Shown here: positions 31,249 through 33,782 of the stretch, piece by piece | Numbering within the stretch: the first letter of the stretch is position 1 | Layout of the letters: each line of letters opens with the position of its first letter | NCBI GenBank assembly: GCA_020061465.1 | Contig: JAGUYG010000025.1 | Coordinates: 1-56,488, forward strand | Direction: 5' to 3' | Source: Ignavibacteriales bacterium | Lineage (GTDB): Bacteria > Bacteroidota > Ignavibacteria > Ignavibacteriales > Ignavibacteriaceae | DNA length: 56,488 bases | The notes under the pieces: model-generated | What the model saw: the letters and a program-made list of their open reading frames with translations, nothing else | Told to the model about the DNA's origin: nothing | Database searches by the model: none | Made by a program: the position numbers and the translations under genes

Positions 31249-31422
31249 ATAATACTCCTATTATTTTATGGATTGATTCAAAAATAGGAAAGAATTAGGA
31301 ATGAATGGTAAATTTTTATGATATTCGGGTATATAGTAATTTAAATGGCAATAAAAGGTAGTGTCCTAATTTGGAAGAAAAAAAAACAAAAAAATATAAT
31401 TAAACAAATAATAAATCTTCTT

Positions 31423-31509
31423 ATGGGTTTAACATAACAGCAAGCTTATGATTTATTACAAGAAGTAAAAGATAAAATATATTCAGAACAAAAAATAAAC
31501 AAAGTATAG
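31423..31509 (+). pseudogene. Small decayed reading frame inside the element
   Basis: ATG GGT TTA ACA is followed by an in-frame TAA, then 23 codons reading QQAYDLLQEVKDKIYSEQ and ending at TAG (31507-31509). It has protein-like amphipathic helix character and looks like a short gene broken by one stop codon. It converges with a second decayed frame. Confidence 0.35.
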
Positions 31510-31512
31510 TTT

Positions 31513-31695
31513 TTATTTATTTCGCTGTTCTGAAATTTTTTTTAATTCTGTTGCAATAAAAGATAAATTTTTATCAATACTTTCTAAAGAATTTACCAAT
31601 TGTTGAACAAAATTAACATTATCGTTTTTAGGTTTTAATTATAAAAATTTTTTGGTAAGAGCAGATTCTATTCGTACAGCTTCATTTTGTATGGT
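31513..31695 (-). pseudogene. Second decayed reading frame inside the element
   Basis: A minus-strand frame of 61 codons with one internal TAA at 31639-31641. The segments before and after it (NEAVRIESALTKKFL and NFVQQLVNSLESIDKNL) have helical protein character. There is no normal start codon. Probably a remnant of the element's original small gene. Confidence 0.35.
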
Positions 31696-31766
31696 TTAGA
31701 CCTTTATTTGTCATTTGACATACTGTTTGACGTGTTTAAATGCACACGGATAGTGCCAATTTTATT

Positions 31767-32158
31767 AAATAATGGGTGAGCCATTTTAATGCTCACCCAT
31801 TATTTACCGGAATACAGTCTCAATTTTAAGGTTGAGAATTAACCTGCTATGAACTAATTTTAGGTGCTTGTTTAGTCTGTTCAAGCAGGCTTAACAATTA
31901 AGGGCTTATAGGTGTTCACGCACTTATAAGCCTGATTATATAGGTAGCCCTGTTATTAGTAGGGAAATGTTATTATTTTGAGTAACATTTTTCACCTGTA
32001 TCTTTCTCTAAGTGCTCGTAACACTTAGTTAGTGATAAAAAATGAACTGGTTACGGGAGATATGATTCCCGCCCAAACTGAATTGAGGCAATGTTCAGCA
32101 ATGTCAGTTCAGTAAGCCAGTCCACTGGTTTAAGGGTAACTAACAATTAGTTACCCTT
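31767..32158 (-). ncRNA. Structured RNA candidate in the element
   Basis: About 390 bases with little coding potential but many strong stems. 15-bp perfect AAATAATGGGTGAGC at 31767-31781 with 31791-31805. TCTCAA/TTGAGA at 31818-31837. 12-bp GGCTTATAGGTG/CACTTATAAGCC at 31903-31932. An 8-bp stem ATATAGGT/ACCTGTAT (31937-32001) encloses two hairpins (31948-31964 and 31965-31990), that is, a three-way junction. CTAAGTG/CACTTAG is at 32008-32028. A multibranch ACTGG/CCAGT at 32046-32121 contains CGGGA/TCCCG and AACTGA/TCAGTT. A 12-bp hairpin at 32132-32158 overlaps the gene's stop codon. The strand is unknown; minus would make it a 3' UTR or downstream RNA of the cargo gene. No match to RNase P, tmRNA, SRP or a group II domain V is seen. 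Confidence 0.55.
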
Positions 32159-32824
32159 TCCTAAACGCTTCTTTTTCAAATCAAAGAAATCAGTTATAAA
32201 ATCTAAATCGTCAAGCGTCAATCCATCTTCCAAAGAGAATGTAAATTTTTTCCCACTTGGGAGTTCAAAGTTCTGAAAACCTTTTGGGATAAGAACTTGC
32301 TCTGATATTTTACTCACCGTTGATTTATATTGTTCATCATTTAAACTAATATTATCATTCACAACAATGTTACGTTTAAGACTTAATTCTCTAAAAGAAT
32401 CAATTACAAATTGATACCATCTATCAACTGTTTTTCTATCAATGCCAAATAATTTTATAAGAGTTTGTTTTGTTTGTTCAGGCGAAGGAAGCGTATAATT
32501 AGGATATTTTTCAAGAAAAGAGGATAATACTTCATCTTTTCTAACCGCAATGTGTTTAGCCTCAATATCTTCGTCACCAATAGGGTTTATAATTTGGATA
32601 GCTAAATCAGTTAATTCTAAAATGCCTTTAGGTTTTTTAGTAACAAGCCCAAACTTTTGCAAGGCGGTTATTGTTGCAGGGAAGTAACTACTTTTTTGTC
32701 TAACCTTAAAAATTTCAGGCAACAAATCTTCTGATACTTCTCTGTCTTTATAAGTTTTATAAATGTCTTTAATGATTCTAACAGCTTCGCTGAAAGATAC
32801 TTGGGGTGGATATTTTGTTAGCAT
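32147..32824 (-). CDS. Cargo protein of the element, winged-helix-like (DUF5343-like)
   Basis: 225 residues, cytoplasmic. Residues about 1-150 (FSEAVRIIKDIYKTYKDREV, then KSSYFPATITALQKFGLV and GILELTDLAIQI, then LFGIDRKTVDRWYQFV) have the layout of winged-helix domains of the DUF5343 kind, with a helix-turn-helix-like pair before a hairpin. The last 50 residues are basic at the end (DLKKKRLGKG). No catalytic motif is seen. It is the only intact gene of a transposase-less mobile element, so it may be a regulator or an accessory (including defence) function, but nothing in the sequence settles this. Confidence 0.6.
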   Translation of the reverse strand: MLTKYPPQVSFSEAVRIIKDIYKTYKDREVSEDLLPEIFKVRQKSSYFPATITALQKFGLVTKKPKGILELTDLAIQIINPIGDEDIEAKHIAVRKDEVLSSFLEKYPNYTLPSPEQTKQTLIKLFGIDRKTVDRWYQFVIDSFRELSLKRNIVVNDNISLNDEQYKSTVSKISEQVLIPKGFQNFELPSGKKFTFSLEDGLTLDDLDFITDFFDLKKKRLGKGN

Positions 32825-33077
32825 TTTAACCTCTTCTTAAAATGTTGATAAAAACGTTCACCCCTAATATAACACAAATTAACTAAAATACAATGGGCGG
32901 ACATAAATAATTATGTTTGTTTATTTATTTTGGTTTTATTGGGTTTGGGCACTATCTAAAAGTCAAACAGTTAAATAGTTTAGAGGTGAGATAAAAATAA
33001 TTAATTAAATGTGTCTAAGATGAAATTAGGACACTACCCAATAAAAGAATAAAAGTTTTTGTTGAAAGGAATATCTG

Positions 33078-33782
33078 ATGAGTCTCGTTCAACTAAAAAA
33101 TGAATTGAAACAAATATCGAATAAAGAGCATGCAAAAATACTTGCAAGATTTTTTAAGACGGGACCCGGCGAATATGGCGATGGAGATGTTTTCATCGGA
33201 ATTAAAGTACCGCCTTTACGAGCCATTGCAAAAAAATTTTTATCTCTCGGTTTTGAAGATATTCAAACGCTGCTTAATTCAGAGATTCACGAGGAACGTT
33301 TAGCAGCCCTAATGATCTTGACTCTCCGCTTTCCTAAAGCTAACGAAACAGAAAAACAAGAGATTGTAAATATCTATCTGAAAAACACAAAAAGAATTAA
33401 TAATTGGGATTTGGTTGATTTGTCAGCCGATCGGATTTTGGGTGCATACTTGTTTGATAAAGATAAAACAATTCTTGAGCAGCTTGCCAAATCTGAAAAC
33501 CTCTGGGAAAGAAGACTAGCGGTGATGTCAACTTTTCATTTCATAAAAAATAATCGGTTTAGTTATGCGCTTAAAATTTATCGACTTGTGATAAATGATG
33601 AACACGATTTAATTCACAAAGCCGTTGGCTGGATGCTTCGTGAAATAGGCAAACGGGATTTAGAAACGGAAGAAAAATTTCTTCGGAAACATTATAAAAA
33701 AATGCCGCGAACCATGCTTCGCTATGCAATAGAAAGATTTGATGAAGAGAAAAGATTGGCGTATTTAAAGGGAAATGTTTGA
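33078..33782 (+). CDS. DNA alkylation repair protein, AlkD family
   Basis: 234 residues of HEAT-like helical repeats. Family features: FKTGPGEYGDGDVFIGIKVP at the front, EERLAALMILTLRF, NNWDLVDLSADRILG-like segment (WDLVDLSA), ENLWERRLAVMSTFHFI and HKAVGWMLREIGKRD. AlkD-type enzymes excise alkylated purines (3-methyladenine, 7-methylguanine). Good ribosome site AAAGGA. Starts 31 bases after the right target duplication of the mobile element, so its promoter may have been changed by the insertion. Confidence 0.93.
   Translation: MSLVQLKNELKQISNKEHAKILARFFKTGPGEYGDGDVFIGIKVPPLRAIAKKFLSLGFEDIQTLLNSEIHEERLAALMILTLRFPKANETEKQEIVNIYLKNTKRINNWDLVDLSADRILGAYLFDKDKTILEQLAKSENLWERRLAVMSTFHFIKNNRFSYALKIYRLVINDEHDLIHKAVGWMLREIGKRDLETEEKFLRKHYKKMPRTMLRYAIERFDEEKRLAYLKGNV

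What the first reader, a model, noticed from the sequence alone, without database searches (positions are those of the whole stretch)
31349..33046. Transposase-less 1.68-kb element with perfect ends and target duplication
Seen: 16-bp perfect inverted ends, exact 8-bp CAATAAAA duplication, one intact gene, a large folded non-coding stretch, two decayed small frames, no transposase. Known: mobile insertion cassettes move by a transposase in trans and carry passenger genes. Inference: this is such a cassette whose payload is a winged-helix-like protein plus a structured RNA, an unusual and possibly undescribed cargo pair.
Basis: partly seen in the sequence, partly recalled or inferred. Interest (0 to 1): 0.8.

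Follow-up and report, generated by a model that had tools for sequence, protein, structure and literature searches.

The report
Stripped IS1-type transposon keeping RNA switch
A small jumping-DNA element has lost its own jumping enzyme but kept its perfect ends, a DNA-binding cargo gene and the RNA leader that in complete relatives seems to switch production of that enzyme on and off.

Summary
In detail: 16-bp perfect inverted ends, exact 8-bp CAATAAAA duplication, one intact gene, strongly folded non-coding DNA and no transposase. Complete relatives show what it was. L013 (same class) has the same ends, its own 8-bp duplication, a 49%-identical cargo protein, and an IS1-type transposase. The clade is widespread: 66 of 141 transposase places are bounded by such ends with perfect 8-bp duplications, and 64 of those 66 exceed 1.5 kb. 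The "structured RNA cargo" is mainly the leader of the lost transposase gene. In relatives its 3' arm can pair either with an upstream arm or with the transposase start region, and both helices covary. Rfam gave no match. In the window that start region is gone with the transposase. The protein is a predicted winged-helix DNA binder that recurs in these elements. So this is a transposase-less derivative (MIC-like) of a cargo-bearing IS1-type clade with a probable bistable transposase leader. Switching is inferred from sequence. No cognate transposase or second copy was found in its own assembly, so movement in trans is unproven.

The parts
31349..31356 (.). left target-site duplication CAATAAAA
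   Evidence: sequence
31357..31372 (+). terminal inverted repeat, GGTAGTGTCCTAATTT
   Evidence: identical 16-mer bounds the element in L013
31373..31766 (.). arm on the far side of the lost transposase; two short interrupted frames, no recognisable homologue
31767..31805 (-). perfect 15-bp hairpin (terminator-like or bidirectional), at the scar where the transposase gene would start
   Evidence: z -6.1
31796..31936 (-). transposase leader RNA, whole-model match to covariance model R1 (92.7 bits)
   Evidence: the window is one of the 14 sequences in the model
31813..31821 (-). remnant of the transposase start region (GAGACTGTA); homology ends where the ATG would be
   Evidence: alignment A3; coordinates
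31843..31855 (-). 3' arm B (AGTTCATAGCAGG) of the leader
31872..31894 (-). weak local hairpin H2 that contains arm A and has one C-A mismatch
31879..31890 (-). 5' arm A (GCCTGCTTGAAC), complementary to arm B with one bulge
31903..31934 (-). hairpin H1 of the leader
31956..31988 (-). possible 10-codon upstream ORF MLLKIITFPY*, resembling MSKVLKLIQ*, MSNVLKILV*, MRKILKLLT* in relatives
32008..32028 (-). short hairpin upstream of the small ORF, inside the stretch aligned to L052
   Evidence: L052, 218 bp, 67%, E 8e-16
32037..32130 (-). three-way junction closed by 10 bp and followed by a T run; function unknown
   Evidence: z -3.6
32132..32158 (-). hairpin across the stop codon of the cargo gene, terminator-like
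   Evidence: sequence, fold
32147..32824 (-). 225-aa cargo protein, predicted winged-helix N-terminal domain
33023..33038 (-). terminal inverted repeat, other end
33039..33046 (.). right target-site duplication CAATAAAA
   Evidence: sequence

Best explanation
Identity: 31357-33038 is a transposase-deleted derivative of a widespread clade of cargo-carrying IS1-type elements. It still has both ends, the 8-bp target duplication, one recurrent cargo gene for a winged-helix protein, and the RNA leader that stood in front of the transposase gene. How the leader most likely works in complete relatives: the mRNA has a hairpin (H1), a 5' arm (A) and a 3' arm (B). B can pair with A, leaving the transposase start region free, or with the start codon region itself (C), closing it. 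A can also fold into a weak local hairpin (H2), which would release B to close the start. Something that favours H2 or H1 (a protein, a ribosome leaving the small upstream ORF, or the timing of transcription) would set transposase output. Shown by sequence: ends, duplication, conserved leader in front of the transposase, covariation of H1, A:B and B:C, and loss of C in the window. Inferred: that the switch operates in cells, what triggers it, that a foreign transposase can move the window element, and that the protein binds DNA.
For: Same 16-bp ends, own 8-bp duplication, homologous cargo (49%) and IS1-type transposase in L013. 66 of 141 transposase places bounded with perfect 8-bp duplications; a 338-bp derivative, too short for a transposase, with duplication CCCGCTTT in G271. 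The leader aligns in the window: 70% over 121 bp with L013, 67% over 218 bp with L052, E 8e-16. H1: each of 11 predicted pairs has double-sided changes in at least one of 22 sequences. H1 + A:B on 14 sequences: 13 of 23 pairs with double-sided change (1/500 shuffles as high), 33 such cells against 13.2 shuffled (0/500). B:C: 91.3% paired, 13 double-change cells against 4.4 shuffled, both 0/500. Own leader pairs better with its own start region than with those of others: -19.2 against -12.8 kcal/mol over 26 hand-picked leaders, 0/20000 permutations, and -17.9 against -13.0 over 13 further model-found leaders, 0/20000. Among 141 unselected places, 18 have z below -3 for start-region complementarity, 15 of them leader loci.
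Against: No cognate transposase and no second copy in the own assembly, so mobility in trans is not shown. The transposase could have been lost after insertion. Folding energies do not show the start region to be more closed in leaders than in other loci: median cost of freeing it 7.05 kcal/mol in 36 leaders, 8.35 in 115 others, a difference the wrong way (p 0.009). On B:C two of the five measures are not outstanding: double-change pairs 42/500, further pair types 315/500. In one search single H1 pairs are broken or gapped in up to 7 of 22 sequences. The 26 leaders were chosen by eye; R1, which found the 13, holds the start region as sequence though not the B:C pairs. 4 of 29 CM matches (weak, E 8e-4 to 9e-3) do not abut a transposase. 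A small upstream ORF was found in 11 of 26 leaders, in 8 with a common spacing.
Confidence: 0.72

Rival explanations
1. The folded region is a genuine non-coding RNA cargo acting with the 225-aa protein (for example an RNA-protein regulatory or defence pair) and only happens to sit in an IS-ended cassette.
For: Protein and leader co-occur in the window, L013, L014, L059, L270, L076 and L080 (leader by model R1) and, with the leader judged by eye only, in L140 and L062. A remote homologue in L011 is fused to a TIR-like domain (PADLOC 1.3e-8). The window leader is still well formed at 92.7 bits.
Against: The leader stands in front of transposases whose neighbourhoods carry other genes and no homologue of this protein (L048, L049, L051, L052), and 24 of 29 CM matches abut a transposase. 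The protein also occurs in elements in which R1 finds no leader (L099, L107).
Confidence: 0.12
2. The repeated arms are DNA operator sites for a regulator (transposase or cargo protein) rather than an RNA switch.
For: Arm A and the start region are imperfect direct repeats and B is inverted, as operators can be. The cargo protein looks like a DNA binder.
Against: G-U pairs are used and pairs change on both sides between elements. H1 has a conserved stem and loop layout with changing sequence. Loci without the cargo protein keep the leader.
Confidence: 0.12
3. It is a dead remnant: a full element inserted here, then lost its transposase by deletion and has never moved in its present form. (This concerns history only and is compatible with the identity given above.)
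For: Single copy, no cognate transposase in the assembly. Homology to the leader stops where the transposase ATG would be.
Against: Perfect ends, perfect duplication, intact cargo frame and well-kept leader argue for recent arrival. A short derivative without room for a transposase exists elsewhere with its own duplication (338-bp L248).
Confidence: 0.45

Closest known systems
IS1 family insertion sequences (ISfinder family; recalled, transposase tested here)
   Same: L013's transposase hits Pfam DDE_Tnp_IS1 above cut-off (25.4 vs 24.1) and NCBIfam IS1 as best family; 8-bp duplications; ends beginning GGT
   Different: NCBIfam IS1 score 71.8 is under its cut-off of 100, and Pfam DDE_Tnp_IS240 scores slightly higher (29.2 vs cut-off 27); a single 279-aa frame; elements of about 3 kb with cargo instead of about 0.8 kb (recalled); the window itself has no transposase
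Mobile insertion cassettes (MICs) and transporter IS (tIS)
   Same: IS ends and target duplication around passenger genes; no transposase in the window element, cargo plus transposase in relatives. PMC7986276 (passages read) states that a number of IS families have tIS members
   Different: No cognate transposase found in the same genome; the kept piece includes the transposase leader
ISPpu9 tnp 5'-UTR of Pseudomonas putida (PMC8450116, passages read)
   Same: A transposase mRNA whose 5'-UTR fold is reported to bury the ribosome binding site and limit translation
   Different: ISPpu9 uses two small RNAs; here alternative helices within one leader, seen in several phyla; the two leaders were not aligned
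Winged-helix DNA-binding proteins (MarR/DtxR-type wing; FokI recognition domain; 3bhw)
   Same: Model residues 6-81 align at Z about 6 with MarR-type chains; 1fok and 3bhw align over about 140 residues at Z 6.7-6.8
   Different: No significant sequence match in PDB (best 0.023); Z under 8 may be only a common arrangement

Membership tests
IS1 family (relatives that carry the transposase) | IS1-type DDE transposase | tested here: met
   L013 transposase: Pfam PF03400 25.4 bits vs cut-off 24.1, PF13610 (IS240) 29.2 vs 27; NCBIfam IS1 is the best family, 71.8 bits but under its cut-off of 100
IS1 family (relatives that carry the transposase) | short target duplication (8-9 bp, recalled) | tested here: met
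   66 of 141 places with perfect 8-bp duplications; one 9-bp case, L178
IS1 family (window element) | own transposase | tested here: not met
   no such frame in 31357-33038; filed as a derivative, not as an IS1 element
Mobile insertion cassette | IS-type terminal repeats and target duplication around non-transposase DNA | tested here: met
Mobile insertion cassette | movement in trans by a cognate transposase | tested here: inconclusive
   none found in the own 122-contig assembly; cognate ends with transposase exist in other genomes; movement itself not testable here
IS1595 family (first thought from 8-bp duplications and MICs) | IS1595-type transposase in the elements with the same ends | tested here: not met
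   not among Pfam or NCBIfam hits of L013's transposase to E 0.1; IS1 is
Known RNA family (Rfam 15) | match to any of 4227 models | tested here: not met
   window 31300-33100 to E 1 (only a snoRNA match under its cut-off), the L048 leader to E 5 (none), 13 loci at gathering score (only tRNAs at other places in L050, L064, L139)
DUF5343 (PF17278) | Pfam score above 27 bits | tested here: not met
   no hit for the window protein; 21.9 bits for the remote homologue in L080
Winged-helix fold | fold match | tested here: inconclusive
   mean pLDDT 79; best Z 6.8, no Foldseek match at E 0.001 or better

The most novel reading that the evidence does not exclude
A whole clade of IS1-type transposons, spread over many bacterial phyla, normally carries cargo, and many of its members control the transposase with an undescribed bistable leader RNA in which one arm chooses between an upstream partner and the transposase start codon, possibly read out by a tiny upstream ORF. 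Other members carry a tRNA gene at about the same place. The window is a stripped member that kept the RNA.
Probability: 0.55. Interest if true: 0.75.

Novelty: new variant of a known kind. Interest (0 to 1): 0.6.

Why it matters
How bacterial transposons keep their transposase low yet inducible is an old question, known in detail for few elements. A leader with two mutually exclusive, covarying helices in front of an IS1-type transposase gives a directly testable switch in many elements. It also shows that a "structured RNA cargo" can be the regulatory relic of a deleted transposase, a trap for annotation of cassettes. The clade also shows that cargo, at times including tRNA genes, is usual for some IS1-type elements.

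Tried and rejected
IS1595 as parent family: suggested by the 8-bp duplication and MICs, dropped because the transposase of the relative L013 is IS1-type.

Known RNA families: none.

Second copy or partner IS in the own genome: none.

Counting bare ends in 296 phylum genomes at up to 1 mismatch: 20 places in 12 genomes, but the backward control is at least as frequent, so only paired ends with target duplications were used as evidence.

Empty site: the AlkD-like neighbour was found in 57 of 80 family genomes. I printed the upstream DNA of 9 of the 29 fetched loci of other genomes and saw no syntenic site, so not decided.

Close relatives of the 225-aa protein in viral contigs, plasmids and phages: none at the limits used.

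Small frames at 31373-31766 as decayed genes: no homologue. An apparent 128-bp similarity to L249/L250 is AT-rich. Those two related genomes share a lone end at an orthologous site without a partner end.

Inner inverted repeats (GATAGTGCC at 31749-31757 and 32948-32956; ACTGTTTGAC at 31722-31731 and 32962-32971): short, no target duplication seen, left as possible chance.

Thermodynamic proof of a closed start region: not obtained.

Literature: ten searches gave listings only, some of them the top 10-12 rows of longer lists, apart from passages read in PMC8450116 and PMC7986276. In the rows shown there was no paper on this leader or on an IS1-type cargo clade; DUF5343 has no paper in that library. 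Subscription papers are not covered.

Full report
1. The observation. The window holds a 1682-bp element at 31357-33038 with 16-bp perfect inverted ends (GGTAGTGTCCTAATTT) and an exact 8-bp duplication, CAATAAAA. It has one intact ORF, 225 aa, at 32147-32824 on the minus strand. The stretch 31690-32170 folds with z -10.2 (minus strand) and -8.9 (plus strand) against shuffles. There is no transposase. In the own genome (4,207,972 bases, 122 contigs) the ends occur only here at up to 2 mismatches and no transposase like that of the relatives is found.

2. Complete relatives. A protein search in 395 genomes of the phylum matched 5 genomes, the own one included, and found a 49%-identical full-length homologue in G398. 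It lies in an element with the same 16-bp ends and an 8-bp duplication, GAATTTCA. The element also carries a peptidase of the IrrE/ImmA kind, a helix-turn-helix gene and a 279-aa transposase. That transposase hits Pfam IS1 above cut-off (25.4 vs 24.1 bits; IS240-type DDE 29.2 vs 27) and NCBIfam IS1 below cut-off (71.8 vs 100).

3. A cargo-bearing clade. Of 141 transposase places with a located N-terminus, 66 have ends of this type and a perfect 8-bp duplication; 64 of the 66 are longer than 1500 bp, median about 2.95 kb. There are 65 distinct duplications among the 66, so at least one entry is a duplicate (L053 and L126 look the same). Cargo inside bounded elements differs: IrrE-like peptidase (L013), DUF1828 (L052), a Clp protease-like gene (L051). 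Beside transposases whose ends were not found lie a SocA/Panacea-like gene (L014) and a DUF3800 gene (L048). A short derivative without room for a transposase exists besides the window: 338 bp, in G271.

4. The folded RNA is a transposase leader. DNA comparison of the window with L013 gave a non-coding match just upstream of the transposase start; with L052 it extends over 218 bp, E 8e-16. An alignment of 14 leaders (A3), window included, shows hairpin H1, arm A, a local hairpin H2 around A, arm B and the transposase start region C. H1 plus A:B: 85.4% of cells paired, 13 of 23 pairs with changes on both sides (1/500 shuffles), 33 such cells against 13.2 in shuffles (0/500); further pair types 20/500. 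B:C: 91.3% paired (0/500), 13 double-change cells against 4.4 (0/500); but the number of pairs with double change (42/500) and of further pair types (315/500) is not outstanding. In a wider set of 22 sequences each of 11 predicted H1 pairs has at least one sequence with both sides changed, while single pairs are broken or gapped in up to 7. In A3, 13 of 14 H2 hairpins have a C-A mismatch at one of two neighbouring positions; L067 does not.

5. Start-region complementarity tested by swapping. For 26 leaders picked by eye, own leader with own start region gave -19.2 kcal/mol on average, swapped -12.8; 0 of 20000 permutations reached it. With 14 divergent representatives: -20.0 against -13.5, 0 of 20000. 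For 13 further leaders found by the covariance model R1 (which holds the start region as sequence but not the B:C pairs): -17.9 against -13.0, 0 of 20000. Without any choice, 18 of 141 places have z under -3 for complementarity to the start region, 15 of them leader loci. Against a simple reading: the modelled cost of freeing the start region is lower, not higher, in 36 leaders (median 7.05) than in 115 other loci (8.35; p 0.009). The evidence is therefore for two conserved alternative helices, not for a start that is unusually closed.

6. Distribution of the leader. R1 matched 21 of 294 genomes of the class (29 matches, E up to 0.01). 24 of the 29 abut an IS1-type transposase, the window itself is the one strong match without, and four weak matches have none. 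Among the fetched loci, leaders are also matched in other phyla, more weakly (for example L076, L065, L080, L085, L136); others that I judged leaders by eye are not found by R1 (for example L062, L078, L140). Rfam has no such family at the thresholds used.

7. Small upstream ORF. In L014, L059, L262, L274 and L052 a ribosome-site-like sequence precedes a 9-12 codon frame (MRKILKLLT, MSNVLKILV, MSKVLKLIQ, MSKILKTIP, VKTLLKIISLPV, this last from a GTG start); the window has MLLKIITFPY at 31956-31988. L013 and L048 have a longer pair (MRSTWGEVVDFFAGFTTCARAII, MKIYWGRLINPFEGFINCARDIS). These eight stop 12-19 nt before the R1 match. Three more of the 26 examined leaders have a frame with other spacing and 15 have none. 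A role as a sensor is a guess.

8. The window derivative. H1, A, H2 and B are kept. Homology ends at the place of the transposase ATG (GAGACTGTA then unrelated sequence), followed by a 15-bp hairpin and about 400 bp of unrecognised DNA to the end. Whether the gene was lost before or after insertion cannot be told from one copy.

9. The protein. A profile search of the fetched loci found homologues near transposases of the clade in L013, L014, L059, L270, L076, L099, L107, L140, L062, L135 and L080, the last weak (E 9e-4). Eight of these eleven (L013, L059, L076, L099, L107, L062, L135, L080) lie in elements with ends and perfect 8-bp duplications; L140 lies between ends without a duplication; for L014 and L270 no pair of ends was found. 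A remote homologue in L011 carries a TIR-like or deoxyribosyltransferase-like domain. The AlphaFold2 model has mean pLDDT 79, and 85 or more in every block of ten from residue 11 to 150. It resembles winged-helix proteins at Z 5-7, with FokI and 3bhw over about 140 residues, while Foldseek has nothing at E 0.001. DNA binding is an inference.

10. Comparison. It works like a MIC or tIS derivative; membership as an IS1 element fails for the window (no transposase), and movement in trans is undecided. The closest regulated transposase leader found in print is ISPpu9 (passages read), with a different layout.

11. By-catch. tRNA genes recur just upstream of these transposases: ARAGORN calls one on the transposase strand within 450 nt in 14 of 134 distinct upstream regions, 8 of them in elements bounded by target duplications. 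A tRNA-arm pattern is found in 20 of 134 against 0.0027 per 450 nt in control DNA of the same loci, that is about 0.4 expected. Some have odd anticodons. A search for six phrases found no paper.

Noticed in passing
L080 3920-3996, L087 2246-2320, L088 4846-4920, L111 3262-3335, L120 4863-4938, L124 4822-4915, L136 3310-3399, L168 4776-4859 (inside bounded elements); also L068, L089, L101, L102, L130, L169, and L139 somewhat further upstream: tRNA genes, some with odd or four-base anticodons and one reading a stop codon (tta, L168), lie just upstream of IS1-type transposases: 14 of 134 within 450 nt by ARAGORN, 20 of 134 by an arm pattern against about 0.4 expected.
   Followed up: partly
L066, L071, L074, L184 about 40-110 nt upstream of the transposase: tRNA-like 3' halves with acceptor-like stems that ARAGORN does not call (L066, L074, L184 by arm pattern, L071 by eye). 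The stretches of L066, L071 and L074 that I folded are not clearly more stable than shuffles (z 2.0, -0.4, -1.9).
   Followed up: partly
many loci without the leader, e.g. L087, L096, L103, L124: A consensus-like promoter abuts the transposase ATG, suggesting leaderless mRNA as the alternative to the structured leader (by eye).
   Followed up: no
window 32037-32130 (-): Three-way junction with a 10-bp closing helix and a T run, upstream of the leader where some relatives carry a tRNA; no tRNA by ARAGORN or Rfam.
   Followed up: partly
window 31722-31757 and 32948-32971: Two short inner inverted repeats (ACTGTTTGAC and GATAGTGCC) nested on both sides; the second resembles the IS1-type end. No target duplication seen.
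   Followed up: partly
L249 1981-1996 and L250 2043-2058: A lone element end at an orthologous site in two related genomes without a partner end, perhaps a scar.
   Followed up: partly
L011 985-2130 (-): Homologue of the cargo protein fused to a TIR-like or deoxyribosyltransferase-like domain, hinting at defence roles.
   Followed up: no
L051 3388-9666: Two related IS1-type elements side by side in opposite transposase orientation sharing the target duplication AAATATTC.
   Followed up: no
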